A stretch of DNA of 64,000 nucleotides from Chloracidobacterium validum (GTDB taxonomy: Bacteria; Acidobacteriota; Blastocatellia; Chloracidobacteriales; Chloracidobacteriaceae): NCBI RefSeq assembly GCF_018304825.1, contig NZ_CP072648.1:851501-915500 (forward strand), written 5' to 3'. The notes beneath the pieces were generated by a model. The model saw only the letters and a program-made list of their open reading frames with translations, was not told where the DNA came from and did no database searches. Positions 46,921 to 60,054 of this stretch are shown here, piece by piece (the stretch's first letter is position 1; every line of letters begins with the position of its first letter). A program made the translations under genes and the position numbers.

Positions 46921-47871
46921 CTAGCCGTGACGCGCGAGCAAGTAGTCACCAACTTCCGTCAGACGGGAAAAATTTCTAGGTATGCGTAACTGTGCCACGG
47001 GCAACGCCCCAGCCAACTGAGCCAGCAGGTCGAGCGCTGCGACCTGGGCTTCCGGTAGCGGCAGCCAGCTCGGATAGACGTTGGCGAGCAGCCGGCCGAC
47101 GGCCACCCCCGGACTTGTGGGGAGACTCGTAAGTGCTGCCTCATCTGAGGCTGACTCTAGTAAATAGATGGCTGTGAGCGGCGCGGCTTCGACTGGTTCG
47201 TAATCATCCAGTAGCCGATACTGTTTCGGCCAGTGCTCGGAAATGCGCGGCAGGGCATCTGGGCGCCCGTAGAGTGCCACGACCGAGGGCGGCCACAGCC
47301 GGATGGCGCGCGGGCCGAGGTGAACATAAAATCTCTCGCCGCGTGGTTCAATGGTAGCGACGTCTTCCGTGATGAGCTGCGCCCCACGCTCCACCAACAC
47401 CGCTGCCAGGGTAGATTTACCGGCTCCATTCGGGCCGACGAAGGCCAGCGTGGACCGGCCCAGAGCAACCACGCTAGCGTGCAAGCAGACCCGGTGCTGG
47501 AGTTGGAGGAGGAATCCCAGAATCGGCCCAATCAAATAGGTGCATGTGTCCTCGAAAGTTTGCGGCTTTGACCAAGATGCTGTTAGTTGGCGGGCGCGAC
47601 GCTTGTAAGTAAAAGTGGTTCCAACTTGGTAGTGGAAGTAGAAGGTATCGTGAACCGGGTCGCAATACCCGACCATTTCCGGTACTCGGCCGGGGCTAGG
47701 GAGTTGACTTTGATACCAAGGCACACCGGCCACTTGGAAAGAAGACGTCAGTGCTTCTTCAAATAGTACGGAGCAGTCTGGCTGCAACCCATCGGCAAGC
47801 GCCAACTGAAGAAATGGAATCGGGTCGCTCGTCGCCAACCGCAACCCGTACACCGCCTGGATCAACATCAT
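46921..47871 (-). CDS. HPr-kinase-like protein of the lasso peptide cluster
   Basis: 316 residues. HASVVALGRSTLAFVGPNGAGKSTLAAVLVERGAQLITEDV (about 150-191) gives the HPr-kinase P-loop GPNGAGKST and the following acidic ED. The N-terminal 120 residues are unlike HPr kinase but like the family found beside lasso precursors. In paeninodin-type clusters such kinases phosphorylate the C-terminal Ser of the precursor. Here the precursor ends in VSR, so the only candidate Ser in the tail is the penultimate residue. It is the last gene of the cluster, 27 bases after the precursor stop. Start chosen at the first of two ATGs; ribosome site weak. Confidence 0.85.
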   Translation of the reverse strand: MMLIQAVYGLRLATSDPIPFLQLALADGLQPDCSVLFEEALTSSFQVAGVPWYQSQLPSPGRVPEMVGYCDPVHDTFYFHYQVGTTFTYKRRARQLTASWSKPQTFEDTCTYLIGPILGFLLQLQHRVCLHASVVALGRSTLAFVGPNGAGKSTLAAVLVERGAQLITEDVATIEPRGERFYVHLGPRAIRLWPPSVVALYGRPDALPRISEHWPKQYRLLDDYEPVEAAPLTAIYLLESASDEAALTSLPTSPGVAVGRLLANVYPSWLPLPEAQVAALDLLAQLAGALPVAQLRIPRNFSRLTEVGDYLLARHG

Positions 47872-47873
47872 CG

Positions 47874-47906
47874 AGCAGTGGTCAGCGGGTAGCAGTGGTC
47901 AGCGGG
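47874..47906. repeat. 17-bp tandem duplication at the lasso precursor stop
   Basis: AGCAGTGGTCAGCGGG occurs at 47874-47889 and 47891-47906 (period 17). It covers the last codons and stop of the precursor and most of the spacer to the kinase gene. Removing one unit leaves the precursor unchanged and shortens the spacer from 27 to 10 bases, so this looks like a spacer expansion. Confidence 0.85.
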
Positions 47907-48099
47907 AGACTCGATTCGGTGCTGGACCTATCCGATCAGCCCGAATGCCACCCGAAGTTGCCTGGGTTAGCTCAAGCAATGTGCCATAGTCCGTCAACGT
48001 GGGACGTTGGTAGGGCTTTTTGTGGGGCAATGGCGCGGTCGAGGTGCTGGTAGGTGAGTTCATGCCTGAGTTGGGTAAGGGCTGCAAAGAGGAATTCAT
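47899..48099 (-). CDS. Lasso peptide precursor
   Basis: 66 residues from the ATG at 48099, which has GGAG eight bases upstream; a longer frame from 48156 overlaps the cyclase gene and is rejected. Residues 30-45 read YQRPTLTDYGTLLELT, an exact YxxPxLxxxGxxxxxT leader motif, the B1 recognition element with Thr at position -2. Cleavage after Gln46 gives a 20-residue core, ATSGGIRAD then RIGPAPNRVSR, with a nine-residue ring between Ala1 and Asp9. Other starts would need a ring closed from Thr2 (eight) or Ser3 (seven). The core is strongly basic with four Arg. It lies 14 bases after the cyclase gene and before the kinase gene. Confidence 0.88.
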   Translation of the reverse strand: MNSSLQPLPNSGMNSPTSTSTAPLPHKKPYQRPTLTDYGTLLELTQATSGGIRADRIGPAPNRVSR

Positions 48100-48113
48100 G
48101 TCAGTCTCCAGAG

Positions 48114-49973
48114 CTATGCTGAATGTTGAGATAGACAACATTGATATTGCATCCATTTGTATAGACTTAGCGGGCTGAGGTCAACAAAAGATTGATCCTC
48201 TGGTTGTGCATTCCACAGCAGGGGACGGCCAACGATGGCTTCGTCTACAAAGTAGCTCAGGCTTTGCCAAGCCTCATCCGCAGCAAAGATCTGTGCCCAG
48301 GCTGTGCCATGCCGCGCGATGTAGCCGCTGATGGGGAACTGCCGGAGTGGAGTTTTGGCGCGGCGGACAACCGCGCGTGGCAGTCGTCTGCTGAGAGCCT
48401 CGCGGAAGAGCCACTTGTCCAGGCAAAACGGCACTGGCGGAATGGCGAGCAGAAATTCAATCACCCGTTGGTCAAGAAGTGGGTAGCGCATTTCAACCAA
48501 GGCCCCAGTAAAGGCCGGATCGCCGTACTCGTGGTCATTGGCCAGGTGAACGCGACTGAGGAAACGGACGGCCAAGCTGCGAAAAGGATGCTGGGGCAGT
48601 TCCGCGGCTGGCAAGTTACCGCGTAGATGTTCGACGTAACCGGACTGGCGCAGCCGGTGGGCAAAATCCGCCGCCAACCACCGGGGGGGGGTGGGCGGCT
48701 GCGCGGCAGACTTCCGTCCAAGCCGGCGGCGGATTGCGTAAAAGCCCTGACGCCCATCGCTGATGACGTAATCGAGCACGGCTCTGCCGAAAGCCAATAG
48801 CTGGCGCTGTGCCAGCAAATGCCGCAGGTAGGGAGCGGTTTGTTGCGCCAGGACCTCGTCACCCCATTGTCCGGTCAGTAGTAGGCGCGCGTGCCTTGCT
48901 ACTTGCCGATAGCTTTCAGTGATCCCATTCCAAAAAGGTTCGTGAACCGGTTCTGGTGGGGGGTGTAGCACGTCTGGATGCGGGACATAGGGCTGCCAGT
49001 CATCGTGACGGATGAAGGTGATTGGGATGCCGTGGGCCTGGGCTGCTAGCCCGGCAAAGTACCGTTCGTCATCGGGAATGAGTTGATCGAAGACATTGGT
49101 GAAAGCGTGGAGCGCTGTCGTTGGAGTGAACTGACGCGCCGCGTGAACCACGACGTTGGAGTCAAGTCCGCCGCTCAGAAAAACTGCTGCGCGGGGCGCG
49201 CGCAGGCGGTCGGCAACTGCTTGTTCAAGGAGGAATTGAAAATGCTCAACGTAGTCACGCGGATGAGCGTGGCGAAGGCAGCCATCGGTTGGCCAAGTCC
49301 AGTATTGCCACTGCCGCAGCGTGCCGTTTTCCAAACAAAACGCCGAAGCGCGCCGCAGCCGCCGGATGGCGCGGTAGATGGTGGCGTCCTCATCCATTTT
49401 CATGCCATGGATGAGAAAGTCGGCGATGGCGAAGTCATCGAGGTCGGTGGGAATGGTCGTCGGCACGCTTGGGTGCGCCCTGACCGTATCGAGCGCGCTG
49501 GCTGCAATCAACAAGTCCTGTTGGTGGTGGTAATACAGCGGCTTGATGGCGAAGCGGTCGCGCGCGCAAAAGAGACGCTGCCGAGTGGCATCCCACAGGG
49601 CAAAGGCGAAATCACCGCGCAGGTGCTGAAGGCAGTCCAAACCCCAAGCTCGATAAGCCTGCCAAAGTAGCCTGGCATCCGGCATGTCGAGTGAAGCGTC
49701 AAAGCCGGCTGAACGGAGCGCCCGGCAGAGTTCAGAACGTGCATCAAGCCGGATGTCGGCAGCCAGCCAGATCGCTTCGTCAAACGTAAGCGGCGGCACT
49801 GTTTGCGTGAGGTCATCCACCGAGAGGTGGGCATAACCCAGCGCAATGTGCTCATAAGTCCATTGTGACTGTCCATCAGGACCACGCCAGGCTAACGATT
49901 GAAGCAGCCGATTCGCTATCGCTGAATCAATTGGGCGTCCCGGTGGGTTGGCAACGACGAAAAAACTACTCAC
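48114..49973 (-). CDS. Lasso peptide cyclase (asparagine synthetase-like, C protein)
   Basis: 619 residues from a GTG at 49973 overlapping the B2 stop (GTGA). The N-terminal class II glutaminase-like part (LAWRGPDGQ, GYAHLSVDD, WLAADIRLDARSEL, LRGDFAFALWD) lacks the nucleophile Cys2: it starts MSSFF, as in lasso cyclases that do not use glutamine. The ATP-pyrophosphatase part has VFLSGGLDSNVVVH near 265 and LLTGQWGDEVLA near 372, ending in RYPLLDQRVIEFLLAIP and RRAKTPLRQFP. It should adenylate Asp9 of the core and close the macrolactam. A run of nine G (48683-48691) lies within the gene. Confidence 0.93.
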   Translation of the reverse strand: MSSFFVVANPPGRPIDSAIANRLLQSLAWRGPDGQSQWTYEHIALGYAHLSVDDLTQTVPPLTFDEAIWLAADIRLDARSELCRALRSAGFDASLDMPDARLLWQAYRAWGLDCLQHLRGDFAFALWDATRQRLFCARDRFAIKPLYYHHQQDLLIAASALDTVRAHPSVPTTIPTDLDDFAIADFLIHGMKMDEDATIYRAIRRLRRASAFCLENGTLRQWQYWTWPTDGCLRHAHPRDYVEHFQFLLEQAVADRLRAPRAAVFLSGGLDSNVVVHAARQFTPTTALHAFTNVFDQLIPDDERYFAGLAAQAHGIPITFIRHDDWQPYVPHPDVLHPPPEPVHEPFWNGITESYRQVARHARLLLTGQWGDEVLAQQTAPYLRHLLAQRQLLAFGRAVLDYVISDGRQGFYAIRRRLGRKSAAQPPTPPRWLAADFAHRLRQSGYVEHLRGNLPAAELPQHPFRSLAVRFLSRVHLANDHEYGDPAFTGALVEMRYPLLDQRVIEFLLAIPPVPFCLDKWLFREALSRRLPRAVVRRAKTPLRQFPISGYIARHGTAWAQIFAADEAWQSLSYFVDEAIVGRPLLWNAQPEDQSFVDLSPLSLYKWMQYQCCLSQHSA

Positions 49974-50434
49974 GCTGCACTGAGGGGAGTATCAAAGACG
50001 GCATAGCGCTGCCGCACGTCTGGAGCTTCCATGAGCGGCGCACCCTGCCATTCAACCCAAGCATGGGCTTCAAGTGAGGCTGGCGTTTTGGCGACGCCAA
50101 GGATGATGTCACCAACGACACCCCGCCGAGCCAGTAAAAACCACAGTGTCATGGCCCGAACCAAGCACGTAGCTGGAACCGGGCAATAACGAGCTGCGCA
50201 GTGAACGAGTTCGACTTGACGGCAAATCCAATCGGTCGGTGGTGGCGATGGAGCGGCACCCATGGTAAGCCACCGCAGGCAGCCCAAGCTGGCACGCACG
50301 CCAATCAGCCGACACAGTAACCGAAGGCAAAGGAGCAGGACCCAAGCCAGCAACAGTCCGCCACGGTCGTCAGGCGGAAGCCGTCTGAATGTGCTCAACC
50401 GGTGGAGCCAACGGGTCGGCTGTGAAGGTAGCAT
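49970..50434 (-). CDS. Lasso peptide leader protease (transglutaminase-like, B2 protein)
   Basis: 154 residues. A hydrophobic segment (about 26-46, LLLAWVLLLCLRLLCRLIGV) precedes the cysteine protease fold, whose triad is visible: Cys in PVPATCLVRAMTLWFLL, His in LEAHAWVEW and the acid in MEAPDV. This is the split B2 protein that cuts the leader after the -1 residue when B1 presents it. It lies 6 bases after B1 and overlaps the cyclase start. Size and motifs match the family. Confidence 0.92.
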   Translation of the reverse strand: MLPSQPTRWLHRLSTFRRLPPDDRGGLLLAWVLLLCLRLLCRLIGVRASLGCLRWLTMGAAPSPPPTDWICRQVELVHCAARYCPVPATCLVRAMTLWFLLARRGVVGDIILGVAKTPASLEAHAWVEWQGAPLMEAPDVRQRYAVFDTPLSAA

Positions 50435-50440
50435 GTGCGT

Positions 50441-50740
50441 TTACTGGGAAAGTGGCTGTTCTGGTGGCTGCAGTTCAAGCAGTTTGGCCTGTAGGAGTTG
50501 CCGAATCAGAGACTCAAAATCGCGGAGCAGTTCCTCCGCGTTGACATCATATTCCTTCAGCAACTGTTCGACGGCTGTTTTGAGGTTGGGGCAAGTCGTA
50601 GCGTGCCGCATCATACTGGTAGCCACACTATCCAAAGTGTAGTAATGCTCCGTGTCAAGGTTGAGTAAAACGGCTTCGTCGGCAACCGTACGAACGACGA
50701 CGTGGGAAGGAATAAAGGCACGATTGGTTAGTAGGCTCAT
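50441..50740 (-). CDS. Lasso peptide leader recognition protein (PqqD-like, B1 protein)
   Basis: 99 residues with a PqqD/RRE winged-helix pattern: VVVRTVADEAVLLNLDTEHYYTLDSVATSMMRHA gives the three strands and first helix, then LKTAVEQLLKEYDVNAEELLRDFESLIRQLLQAKLLE. B1 binds the YxxPxL leader motif and delivers the precursor to B2. It is the first gene of the minus-strand lasso operon, so the promoter must lie in 50741-50887. Confidence 0.9.
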   Translation of the reverse strand: MSLLTNRAFIPSHVVVRTVADEAVLLNLDTEHYYTLDSVATSMMRHATTCPNLKTAVEQLLKEYDVNAEELLRDFESLIRQLLQAKLLELQPPEQPLSQ

Positions 50741-50887
50741 CAGGTTGCTTTGTCTAGAGATTTGTTATGTTTCTAAAGGTATAGCCAATCAGCCCCAAAC
50801 CGTCTAGTCATGGCGCATGACGGCTTGTGCACTGATCGTCGGCCTGTCTATGGTTGCGGCTTTGAAAACCCTCATTCAGTAATCATT
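50741..50887. promoter_or_regulatory. Divergent promoter region of the lasso operon and methyltransferase gene
   Basis: 147 bases between B1 (minus) and the likely methyltransferase start (plus), AT-richer than its flanks. On the minus strand GCTATACC and AACATAACAAAT are possible -10 regions, but no pair with a good -35 can be fixed. The sharing of one regulatory region is the only evidence of coregulation. Confidence 0.4.
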
Positions 50888-52048
50888 ATGTACGCTGACT
50901 ACATTGCGTTGACCTATCACGCCTCACTGATTGCCGATGAAGTCCGAGTTCGCGCGTTCCAGTCAGCCATTGAGGCGGTCGTACGTCCTGGCGATATCGT
51001 GGCGGATGTTGGCTGTGGCACGGGCATTTTGACGCTTTTGGCCTGCCGAGCCGGCGCGCGCCATGTGTACGCCATTGATGAAGGGCCAATCATTGAACTT
51101 GCTAAACAGATCGTGGAACAGAATGGTTATGCTGCCCAAGTAACGCTGATCAATCGTCCTTCCCGCCGCGCGAACTTGCCTGTCCCGGTGGATGTCATTG
51201 TCTCGGAAACAATCGGCAACTACGGTGCCGAAGAGCTGATCCTGTCCACCCTTTCGGATGCGTGCCGGCGATGGCTGAAGCCGGGCGGAAAGGTGATTCC
51301 GCAGAGGCTGGAACTGTACTGCGCCCCAATTGCTTGGCCCAAAACGGAAGCTTCCCTGTCCATCTGGCATCAACCGGTATGCGGTTTTGACTTCTCACCC
51401 GGCCTAACGTTTGCCGTCAATCAGCAATACCCCCGCGACCTGTGTCCAGCGCACCTGCTTGCCCAAGGGATTTGCTACCACCGCTTGGAGCTGTCGTCGG
51501 CGGTCCTGGCGGCTGAGTCTCTGCCCAAAGTCAGTGGGACGGCCCGGTTCAGCATAACGCAGCCGGGTGTCATGGGCGGGGTTGGCGCCTGGTTCAACGC
51601 TTGGCTGACAGACCACGTACACGTGACCAATGATCCGCGGCGCGCGAAGACGAGTTGGGGTCACCTCTGTTTGCCCATTGCCGAGCCGCTACCGGTGACG
51701 GTTGGCGATGAAGTGGACATCACCTTGCGGGCAGTCGGTGGGGGCAGTCTCCTGTGCTGGGAGGTGGTGTGGCGGGGCGTCAACGGCCAATCTCGCGCAT
51801 TTCGGCACTCCGATTTTGAGGGCTGGCTGTCCACGCCGGAGCAGTTGCACCCGCTCGCCCCCACGGCTGCTCCTGGGCTTGGGGTAGATGGACGGATTCA
51901 ACTTTTTCTTCTGACCAAGCTCGATGCCGGGTGGACGATTGAACAAACTGCGCGCGGATTGCATGAGCAGTTCGCGGCTGAGTTTCCGACGCTTGAAGAC
52001 GCGCTCATCTATGTGAAGGCCCGGGCGCTCAAGGTGACCAAGCCGTGA
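50888..52048 (+). CDS. PRMT-like SAM-dependent methyltransferase
   Basis: 386 residues from the ATG at 50888 (MYADYIALTYHASLIADEVR); the ATG at 50810 would add 26 residues of no clear character. Motif I VADVGCGTGILTLLACRAGA, motif post-I VYAIDEG, and a double-Glu loop SETIGNYGAEE follow the protein arginine methyltransferase pattern (SExxGxxxxE). KVIPQRLELYCAPI follows as in that family. The clear THW motif of eukaryotic enzymes is not found, so the substrate is uncertain. It is divergent from the lasso operon, whose predicted core has four Arg, which makes peptide methylation a possible role. Small-molecule methylation is the alternative. Confidence 0.8.
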   Translation: MYADYIALTYHASLIADEVRVRAFQSAIEAVVRPGDIVADVGCGTGILTLLACRAGARHVYAIDEGPIIELAKQIVEQNGYAAQVTLINRPSRRANLPVPVDVIVSETIGNYGAEELILSTLSDACRRWLKPGGKVIPQRLELYCAPIAWPKTEASLSIWHQPVCGFDFSPGLTFAVNQQYPRDLCPAHLLAQGICYHRLELSSAVLAAESLPKVSGTARFSITQPGVMGGVGAWFNAWLTDHVHVTNDPRRAKTSWGHLCLPIAEPLPVTVGDEVDITLRAVGGGSLLCWEVVWRGVNGQSRAFRHSDFEGWLSTPEQLHPLAPTAAPGLGVDGRIQLFLLTKLDAGWTIEQTARGLHEQFAAEFPTLEDALIYVKARALKVTKP

Positions 52049-59010: not shown

Positions 59011-59874
59011 TTAGCTCTGGGCGGGGGTTAAGCCCTGGGCGGCTGCCCACGCCGCAAAGGACTGTTCGAGTTCGTCAAAGGAAGCAATCTCAAAGAGTTG
59101 TTCCTGCATGTGGTGGATTTCAACCGGCGTTTCGGTCACCTGCTCAATGTCGAAGGGGATTTTTTTCACGCGGTCAGAGAGCGCGTATTCGATTTCCCCA
59201 ACCGATGAGCTGATGCCGGCACCGTAGATTTTGGTCAGGCCGGGATCACGGTCACGACCGGCATGCGCCGTCGGGTTGATCAGTCCAAATTCAACGGTGT
59301 ACCAGTAGATGCGCCCTAGTTTGAGTGTATCCGCTTCGTTACGGGCATGGATGCCGGCCAGCCCAAACTTGTGGAAAAACGAGGCAAATCGAGGATTGGT
59401 GATCATGGGCAAGTGGCCCATGAGATCGTGGAACATGTCCGGCGCCGGCGTGTATTCCAGCTCGGTTGGATGCCGCAGAAAGTCAGTGCACGGAAAAAGC
59501 TGCTGCGCCAGCAGCAAAAAGAAGGTCGCCTCTGGAACGTAGCCTTCCACCCGTACGCACTGCCAGCCGGTGCAGGCGCGCAGCCGCTCGCTCAAGTCGG
59601 CCAGGTGCGGCACCCGTTCTCGTTCGTAGCGGAGCTTGTCACGCCCGGCGAGGTATTCGTCGCAAACGCGCCCCAGAATCGCTGCCGCCTGTCGGTCGTA
59701 TAGCCGCCGCCAAGTTTCATGCTGAACCGGCGCATAGACCGGCGGCCGAATATCACGCCCAATCGTGCCTTCTGGGGATGGACTCGGCGCAAGGGGAGGC
59801 GATGGTTTCGCCTTGAAGACGACTTCCGTGGAGAGCTTCTGAGGAAGGGGTTGGAGGACCGCTGTTGCCGACAT
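59011..59874 (-). CDS. phhA: Phenylalanine 4-monooxygenase
   Basis: 287 residues from the ATG at 59874 with AAGGAGAG upstream; a longer frame from 59982 is rejected. After about 40 linker residues, the aromatic amino acid hydroxylase core has the iron ligands in DMFHDLMGHLPM (two His) and YWYTVEFGLI (Glu), with FPCTDFLRHPTELEYTPAPD before them and YGAGISSSVGEIEYAL after. It uses tetrahydropterin and oxygen to convert Phe to Tyr. No pterin dehydratase gene is adjacent. Confidence 0.95.
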   Translation of the reverse strand: MSATAVLQPLPQKLSTEVVFKAKPSPPLAPSPSPEGTIGRDIRPPVYAPVQHETWRRLYDRQAAAILGRVCDEYLAGRDKLRYERERVPHLADLSERLRACTGWQCVRVEGYVPEATFFLLLAQQLFPCTDFLRHPTELEYTPAPDMFHDLMGHLPMITNPRFASFFHKFGLAGIHARNEADTLKLGRIYWYTVEFGLINPTAHAGRDRDPGLTKIYGAGISSSVGEIEYALSDRVKKIPFDIEQVTETPVEIHHMQEQLFEIASFDELEQSFAAWAAAQGLTPAQS

Positions 59875-60054
59875 CGTACGCTCTCCTTTCCATGCAAGGG
59901 TGTGACTTGGGGACGCCAGCCAAACGCTACCGAAGGATGGCGTTAAGACCAACGGCCACCCGCCATAAGTCGTCCCAACCAATTAGTAACGCTGCGTCCT
60001 GGCAAATGTGCCCAGAAAAATAGCCCGAAAAGACACCCTTAGAAAAATCTGCCC

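What the first reader, a model, noticed from the sequence alone, without database searches (positions are those of the whole stretch)
46921..50740. Compact lasso peptide cluster B1-B2-C-A-kinase without visible exporter
Five minus-strand genes with overlaps or gaps of at most 27 bases encode all lasso-forming functions plus an HPr-kinase-like tailoring enzyme. The precursor sits behind the cyclase rather than first. No ABC exporter and no isopeptidase are present in the window, so the product may stay intracellular or use a distant exporter. The cluster lies in an otherwise ordinary chromosome of a probable acidobacterium.
Basis: partly seen in the sequence, partly recalled or inferred. Interest (0 to 1): 0.8.

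Follow-up and report, generated by a model that had tools for sequence, protein, structure and literature searches.

The report
Lasso peptide cluster with PRMT-like methyltransferase
A phototrophic acidobacterium carries genes for a knotted (lasso) peptide plus two likely finishing enzymes, a kinase and, next door and missed at first, a relative of the enzymes that methylate arginine in animals and plants, so the tail of the peptide may be both phosphorylated and methylated.

Summary
In detail: 46921-50740 (-) encodes PqqD-like B1, B2 peptidase, asparagine-synthetase-like cyclase, a 66-aa precursor and an HPr-kinase-like protein. Precursor behind cyclase and no nearby exporter are both common among related clusters, so neither is remarkable. 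Seven precursors of the genus share Thr(-2), Ala1, Asp9 and a Ser-Arg end, predicting a 9-residue ring and 11-residue tail here.

Homologs sit in lasso clusters in several phyla. Its ~75-residue C-terminal extension, weakly PqqD-like, occurs in 6 of 6 genus members and 40 of 47 lasso-adjacent homologs without the loop, but in 0 of 51 non-adjacent double-Glu homologs. It is therefore probably a lasso tailoring enzyme. Arginine as target is inferred: Arg-bearing tails go with double-Glu enzymes, Lys-Thr tails with one loop-less class, Cys-Leu tails with another, but independent cases are few and there are exceptions. I found no report of a PRMT-type lasso enzyme in the library I could search. 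Class known; tailoring enzyme probably new.

The parts
50441..50740 (-). B1, PqqD-like precursor-recognition protein, 99 aa
   Evidence: PF05402 E=1.2e-12, over cut-off; lasso_PqqD models E=7e-11 and 1.5e-8, below their cut-offs
49970..50434 (-). B2, leader peptidase, 154 aa
   Evidence: NF033537 lasso_biosyn_B2 79.4 bits, cut-off 33; PF13471 79.6 bits
48114..49973 (-). C, asparagine-synthetase-like macrolactam cyclase, 619 aa
   Evidence: PF00733 115.9 bits; best NCBIfam match NF033535 lasso cyclase E=2.8e-81, below its cut-off; tree of 50 cyclases
47962..48099 (-). A, leader (46 aa) with YxxPxLxxxGxxxxLT motif
   Evidence: Alignment of 7 genus precursors; GGAG upstream of the ATG
47902..47961 (-). 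A, predicted 20-aa core ATSGGIRADRIGPAPNRVSR: ring Ala1-Asp9, tail of 11 (stop codon 47899-47901)
   Evidence: Thr(-2), Ala1, Asp9 and final Ser-Arg invariant in 7 of 7 genus precursors; cut site inferred from the Thr(-2) rule
46921..47871 (-). K, HPr-kinase-like tailoring kinase, 316 aa
   Evidence: AlphaFold2 model, pLDDT 75; Foldseek best hit L. casei HprK/P, E=3.7e-7; H131, K152, E169-D170 in the H-K-D-D positions
50741..50887 (.). Divergent intergenic region between B1 and the methyltransferase (shared promoter region inferred)
   Evidence: ORF coordinates; a ~940-aa gene is inserted here in 2 of the 6 cluster-bearing genus genomes
50888..52048 (+). PRMT-family methyltransferase, 386 aa (longest ATG ORF starts at 50810; 50888 chosen by alignment with relatives)
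   Evidence: phmmer PRMT6 E=2e-32; model pLDDT 88, Foldseek PRMT6 E=1.1e-28; neighbour of the cluster in 6 of 6 cluster-bearing genus genomes; start by alignment
51203..51235 (+). PRMT double-Glu loop SETIGNYGAEE
   Evidence: Aligned to the PRMT6 SEWMG...E loop; both Glu in 6 of 6 genus members
51794..52018 (+). C-terminal extension shared with lasso-linked methyltransferases, weakly PqqD-like
   Evidence: HMM built without this genus, E=7.4e-15; hhalign of the extension family to B1, score 29.7 against column-shuffled maximum 16.1

Best explanation
The locus makes a lasso peptide. B1 binds the YxxPxL leader, B2 cuts after the residue following Thr(-2), and C joins the Ala1 amino group to the Asp9 side chain round the tail RIGPAPNRVSR. 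K, an HPr-kinase-like enzyme, phosphorylates the precursor, most likely at Ser19. The divergent PRMT-family enzyme, held to the precursor by its PqqD-like C-terminal extension, methylates an arginine of the tail, most likely in the N-R-x-S-R end. Export uses a transporter encoded elsewhere. Shown: gene content, families, conservation, and linkage of the methyltransferase family and its extension to lasso clusters. Inferred: cut site, threading, both modification sites, order of steps, extension as precursor binder, export.
For: Families and order. Precursor invariants: Ser-Arg end in 7 of 7, and the penultimate Ser is the only core Ser/Thr position filled in all seven. Kinase fold. PRMT by sequence, fold, double-Glu loop and T-x-W. 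Methyltransferase and orthologous cyclase occur in the same 6 of 10 family genomes. 60 of 121 homologs are lasso-adjacent by my criterion, including one supported clade of 17 that is all lasso-adjacent and one of 30 with 24. Extension in 6 of 6 genus members and 40 of 47 lasso-adjacent homologs lacking the loop, against 0 of 51 non-adjacent double-Glu homologs. Core tail tracks methyltransferase class.
Against: No product or activity is known. The genus methyltransferase branches with one lasso-linked and four non-adjacent homologs, weakly (92/44), not inside the lasso-only clades. Within the genus, linkage and co-occurrence may be one gain plus synteny. The 7 other lasso-adjacent double-Glu homologs lack the extension. 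The Arg/double-Glu link rests on 1-4 independent pairs and cannot reach significance; two double-Glu lasso loci left out of that count as ambiguous (L274, L154) have no Arg in the last five residues; 10 of 16 cores of the 'FEAG' class carry Arg there without the loop. K has Glu for the first Asp of H-K-D-D, and its Ser is penultimate, not C-terminal as for PadeK. Pfam PRMT_C was not found in the window protein at E<=1, though it is over its cut-off in 8 of 9 homologs scanned. PqqD likeness of the extension is modest (hhalign probability 69; Pfam PqqD below cut-off in 2 of 10 proteins and absent from the window's).
Confidence: 0.6

Rival explanations
1. The methyltransferase tailors the lasso peptide but not at arginine: it methylates a carboxylate (C-terminus or Asp) or another group, as the related lasso enzymes without the Glu loop presumably do.
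For: Most lasso-linked homologs have lost the double-Glu loop and T-x-W, and several of their cores have no Arg, so the family can act on something else; known lasso methyltransferases act on carboxylates (passages of PMC8498205, PMC9266682, PMC13352647).
Against: The genus enzyme keeps both Glu and T-x-W in 6 of 6, and Arg is in the last five residues of 7 of 7 genus cores.
Confidence: 0.25
2. The methyltransferase is an independent bacterial PRMT for a cellular protein and a neighbour by chance; the cluster is an ordinary phosphorylated-lasso cluster.
For: Nearest non-genus homologs include non-adjacent ones whose neighbours look unrelated by eye (L103, L123, L134); in 2 of 6 genomes a ~940-aa gene separates it from B1.
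Against: The extension was otherwise found only in lasso-type homologs (0 of 51 non-adjacent double-Glu homologs); no match at E<=1e-30 in the 4 family genomes without an orthologous cyclase.
Confidence: 0.2
3. A decayed or silent cluster that makes no peptide.
For: No exporter or isopeptidase nearby; no expression data.
Against: All genes are intact in the window, and B1, B2, C, K and the methyltransferase are retained at 53-73% identity in relatives; precursors keep their motifs while the rest varies, and two genomes have two copies.
Confidence: 0.08

Closest known systems
Phosphorylated lasso peptides (PadeK, ThcoK, SyanK, PsmK; BsfK): passages of PMC8498205, PMC9266682, PMC10368454
   Same: B1, B2, C, A plus an HPr-kinase homolog
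   Different: Ser is penultimate (before Arg) instead of C-terminal; H-K-E-D instead of H-K-D-D; no adjacent ABC exporter; a PRMT-family gene beside it
Lasso methyltransferases StspM/LasF (C-terminal carboxyl) and PIMT-type LihM (aspartimide): passages of PMC8498205, PMC9266682, PMC13352647
   Same: SAM-dependent methyltransferase encoded beside a lasso cluster
   Different: StspM was modelled on mitomycin 7-O-methyltransferase and LihM is a PIMT homolog; this one is PRMT by sequence and predicted fold, with a weakly PqqD-like C-terminal extension
Eukaryotic PRMT6 and other PRMTs
   Same: Predicted fold, double-Glu loop, T-x-W loop
   Different: Bacterial, lasso-linked, about 30% identical in the fold alignment, TSW for THW, extra ~75-residue C-terminal domain
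Citrulassin peptidyl-arginine deiminase (passages of PMC8498205)
   Same: An Arg-directed lasso modification
   Different: Deimination by an enzyme encoded away from the cluster, not methylation

Membership tests
Lasso peptide biosynthetic cluster | B1 (PqqD/RRE), B2 peptidase and C cyclase encoded together | tested here: met
   (B2 over its lasso model's cut-off; C and B1 best-matched or matched by lasso models but below their curated cut-offs)
Lasso peptide biosynthetic cluster | Precursor with YxxPxL...G....LT leader, Thr(-2), acid at core position 7-9 | tested here: met
   7 of 7 genus precursors have Thr(-2) and Asp9; the motif's Leu is Phe in one (L027 copy a)
Lasso peptide biosynthetic cluster | Threaded macrolactam product | not testable with these tools
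   Needs MS or NMR
HPr-kinase-like lasso kinases (PadeK type) | HprK/P fold | tested here: met
   Foldseek HprK/P 1kkl E=3.7e-7, with PEPCK structures close behind; model pLDDT 75, residues 9-63 low; no PDB sequence match
HPr-kinase-like lasso kinases (PadeK type) | His-Lys-Asp-Asp motif (PMC9266682, passage) | tested here: inconclusive
   H131, K152, D170 kept; first Asp is Glu169 in 5 of 5 genus kinases, also Glu in L091, L267, L268, L279
HPr-kinase-like lasso kinases (PadeK type) | Core ends in Ser | tested here: not met
   7 of 7 genus cores end in Ser-Arg; it may work like PadeK but is not filed as a C-terminal-Ser kinase (BsfK acts on Ser3, passage of PMC10368454)
PRMT family | PRMT sequence and fold | tested here: met
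   E=2e-32 over 276 residues; Foldseek E=1.1e-28; but Pfam PRMT_C not found in the window protein at E<=1
PRMT family | Double-Glu loop | tested here: met
   E108 and E117 (first-row numbering), 6 of 6 genus members; the loop's role is recalled
PRMT family | THW loop | tested here: inconclusive
   TSW in 6 of 6: the His is Ser
PRMT family | Arginine N-methyltransferase activity | not testable with these tools
   Needs an assay
PIMT lasso methyltransferases (LihM) | PCMT/PIMT domain (PF01135) | tested here: not met
   Not among the 16 Pfam families found in the window protein at E<=1
StspM-type lasso methyltransferases | Homology to mitomycin 7-O-methyltransferase | not tested
   StspM's sequence was not compared; of 76 PDB matches the 60 shown are labelled PRMT or arginine methyltransferase except one (8rbk, 'MGC151858 protein')

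The most novel reading that the evidence does not exclude
A PRMT-family enzyme was recruited into lasso clusters, gained a PqqD-like precursor-binding tail, and split into classes that read different peptide tails: Arg (double-Glu kept, this genus), Lys-Thr ('SDLRG' loop) and Cys-Leu ('FEAG' loop). In this genus the enzyme class was swapped together with the tail, giving neighbouring phospho-Ser19 and methyl-Arg20 on one lasso tail, a two-mark pattern like that of eukaryotic proteins.
Probability: 0.3. Interest if true: 0.8.

Novelty: new variant of a known kind. Interest (0 to 1): 0.6.

Why it matters
If true it adds arginine methylation to the known lasso modifications and shows a PRMT fold recruited into peptide natural-product biosynthesis in several phyla. 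The class-specific tails make substrate choice directly testable by swaps. The loop and the extension give search handles for a tailoring family for which the NCBIfam scans gave no match over a curated cut-off (six proteins of the family); Pfam sees a PRMT_C domain in 8 of 9 homologs scanned but only general methyltransferase domains over cut-off in the window protein.

Tried and rejected
Rejected: gene order or missing exporter as the novelty (both common in relatives). Rejected: the second B2-like gene of this genome (C1:2373510) as a second lasso cluster: it lies with a B1-like gene, a K-like gene, and, by eye, radical-SAM-like and nucleotidyltransferase-like ORFs, and no cyclase hit (L028). 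Rejected: PIMT-type aspartimide chemistry (no PF01135 match in the window protein). Led nowhere: PDB sequence search with K; seven of ten literature searches gave only off-topic papers or none (of only 20 of 87 papers and only 7 of 8 were listed), the other three gave background papers; the sign test on independent pairs has too few pairs.

Limits of counts. 'Lasso-adjacent' means cyclase within 5 kb, or K within 3 kb plus B1/B2 within 6 kb, or K within 100 bases, measured inside each fetched stretch. L098 is counted non-adjacent although it lies about 3.4 kb from the cyclase of L097, on a separately fetched stretch of the same contig; L093, L142 and L152 lie near contig ends; some of the 51 non-adjacent double-Glu homologs (L097, L157, L160) lie 7-10 kb from a cyclase, and some are on short contigs. 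Three loci from contigs already in the set were dropped as duplicates (L277, L278, L281). Cores were picked by hand from motif lists (part's listing was cut from view, as was part of the tree); loci without a clear precursor, and L146, L154 and L274 with ambiguous ones, were left out. Some placements of the cut site in other loci (for example L135, L264, L295) would give rings of 10 and are unsure; only the last five residues were counted. I fetched wide regions for the stronger MT and K hits only. The cyclase tree is a quick one.

Full report
OBSERVATION. The five genes are as described: B1 50441-50740, B2 49970-50434, C 48114-49973, A 47899-48099, K 46921-47871, all minus strand. Profile searches place B1 in PqqD and B2 in the lasso B2 family over the cut-offs; C matches asparagine synthase, with the lasso cyclase model as best NCBIfam hit though under its cut-off; the precursor matches a lasso model weakly, under cut-off. 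The host genome is 3.66 Mb in two contigs and has an FMO antenna gene, which fits Chloracidobacterium (genus recalled, no name was shown).

PRECURSOR. Six of seven genus genomes carry the cluster, and five give seven precursors (one contig ends inside C; two genomes have two copies). Aligned, the invariant columns after Met1 are Lys, Tyr, Pro, Gly and Leu of the leader, Thr(-2), Ala1, Asp9, and the final Ser-Arg. With the usual Thr(-2) rule (start of the abstract of PMC10368454) the core here is ATSGGIRADRIGPAPNRVSR, a ring of nine and a tail of eleven.

KINASE. K has no PDB sequence match, but its model (pLDDT 75, N-terminus poor) is closest to HprK/P and PEPCK. Of the four catalytic residues reported for lasso kinases (passage of PMC9266682), His, Lys and the second Asp are kept and the first Asp is Glu. 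Known enzymes use a C-terminal Ser (passages of PMC8498205) or Ser3 (BsfK, passage of PMC10368454). Here Ser19 is penultimate; it is the only core Ser/Thr position filled in all seven, so it is my predicted site.

METHYLTRANSFERASE. The divergent neighbour at 50888-52048 (+) is a PRMT homolog: PRMT6 at E=2e-32, and 59 of the 60 PDB matches shown (of 76) carry a PRMT or arginine-methyltransferase label; Foldseek of its model gives PRMT6 at 1.1e-28. Pfam, however, gives general methyltransferase domains and no PRMT_C at E<=1 for this protein, while 8 of 9 homologs are over the PRMT_C cut-off. The double-Glu loop (SETIGNYGAEE) and T-x-W are kept in 6 of 6 genus members. In the family the gene occurs in the same 6 of 10 genomes as the orthologous cyclase, though this may be one gain.

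LINK TO LASSO CLUSTERS. Searching 297 phylum genomes found the methyltransferase in 29 and K in 33, often on the same contig and close. Fetched regions and a collection scan showed homologs among B1, B2, C and K genes in Acidobacteriota, Nitrospirota, Myxococcota, Actinomycetota, Chloroflexota and Pseudomonadota (phyla as labelled). In a tree of 121 homologs 60 are lasso-adjacent. One supported clade of 17 ('FEAG' loop, 100/99) is all lasso-adjacent, another of 30 ('SDLRG' loop, 100/99) has 24. The genus forms its own clade beside L091 (lasso) and four non-adjacent homologs, with weak support (92/44).

EXTENSION. After the PRMT domain, many lasso-linked members carry a further ~75-85 residues. 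A profile built without the genus finds it in all 6 genus members (E 4e-14 to 3e-16), in 40 of 47 lasso-adjacent homologs lacking the double-Glu loop, in 7 of 10 non-adjacent homologs lacking it (L098, in truth near a cyclase; L093, L142 and L152 near contig ends; L269, L272, L273), in 0 of 51 non-adjacent double-Glu homologs, and in 0 of 7 other lasso-adjacent double-Glu homologs. The genus is thus the only group in the set with both the loop and the extension. Compared with B1 the extension family scores 29.7, against 10.3 reversed and at most 16.1 in 40 column shuffles, and it gives E>=0.34 against B2, K, C and the PRMT domain. Among 27,397 ORFs the only hits at E<1 that are not methyltransferases are two B1 genes (E=0.0043 and 0.026). 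I read it as a degenerate PqqD-like recognition domain, with moderate confidence.

TAIL AND CLASS. In the hand-picked cores, Arg is in the last five residues in 7 of 7 genus cores, in 2 of 2 other double-Glu loci counted and in L157 (methyltransferase 7.7 kb from the cyclase), against 2 of 18 'SDLRG' cores, where 12 of 18 have Lys-Thr; 15 of 16 'FEAG' cores end in Cys-Leu. Against a simple rule: 10 of 16 'FEAG' cores also carry Arg in the last five, two ambiguous double-Glu loci left out (L274, L154) have none there, and independent pairs number only 1-4, where Arg never went the other way but significance is out of reach. The cyclase tree puts the genus inside a supported clade of 20 with 11 'SDLRG' clusters (SH-aLRT 99); the 9 of those 11 with a found core all have Lys-Thr and no Arg in the last five residues (cores). 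The genus methyltransferase lies outside the 'SDLRG' clade. This suggests, but does not prove, that enzyme class and tail changed together.

EXPORT. No exporter-type ABC domain is in the window, and no isopeptidase over cut-off is in the genome. In 44 of 54 cyclase loci no ABC-like ORF lies within 5 kb (motif scan, several loci truncated), so this is common in the group and says little about where the peptide goes.

LITERATURE. In the held library, lasso peptide with PRMT gives 0 papers, with arginine methyltransferase 1 (passages read, unrelated), with Chloracidobacterium 0, with L11 methyltransferase 1 (listing only, a species description). 'Protein arginine methyltransferase' with the word-start 'RiPP' gives 87 papers, of which the 20 listed look off-topic. 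Passages of three reviews name C-terminal carboxyl and PIMT methyltransferases and no PRMT. Subscription papers are mostly missing and bioRxiv preprints are not held, so absence from print is not shown.

VERDICT. A real lasso cluster of a known kind, with a probable new tailoring enzyme beside it.

Noticed in passing
G000:C1:2368001-2380000 (L028): Second PqqD-like plus B2-like set in the same genome, with a K-like gene and, by eye, radical-SAM-like and nucleotidyltransferase-like ORFs, no lasso cyclase hit.
   Followed up: partly
L024:5503-8319 and L025:9487-12309: A gene of ~940 aa sits between B1 and the methyltransferase in two genus genomes; function not examined.
   Followed up: no
L023:6158-7064 and L027:6403-7297: Two precursor genes with different cores, about 450-480 bases apart by their open frames.
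   Followed up: partly
L154, L160, L285, L287: Loci with two methyltransferases of different classes in or near one lasso cluster.
   Followed up: no
L117:6042-11678 and L120: PRMT-like domains inside very long ORFs whose flanking sequence looks, by eye, like nonribosomal peptide synthetase.
   Followed up: no
L269, L272, L273: Methyltransferases of the SDLRG clade with the extension; in L269 and L272 a B1-like gene is adjacent, no cyclase hit in any of the three stretches: perhaps another peptide class.
   Followed up: no
L288:7032-7775: Three tandem precursor candidates, each ending in Cys-Leu, in one cluster.
   Followed up: no
window 59011-59982 (-): ORF resembling an aromatic amino acid hydroxylase, by eye only.
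   Followed up: no
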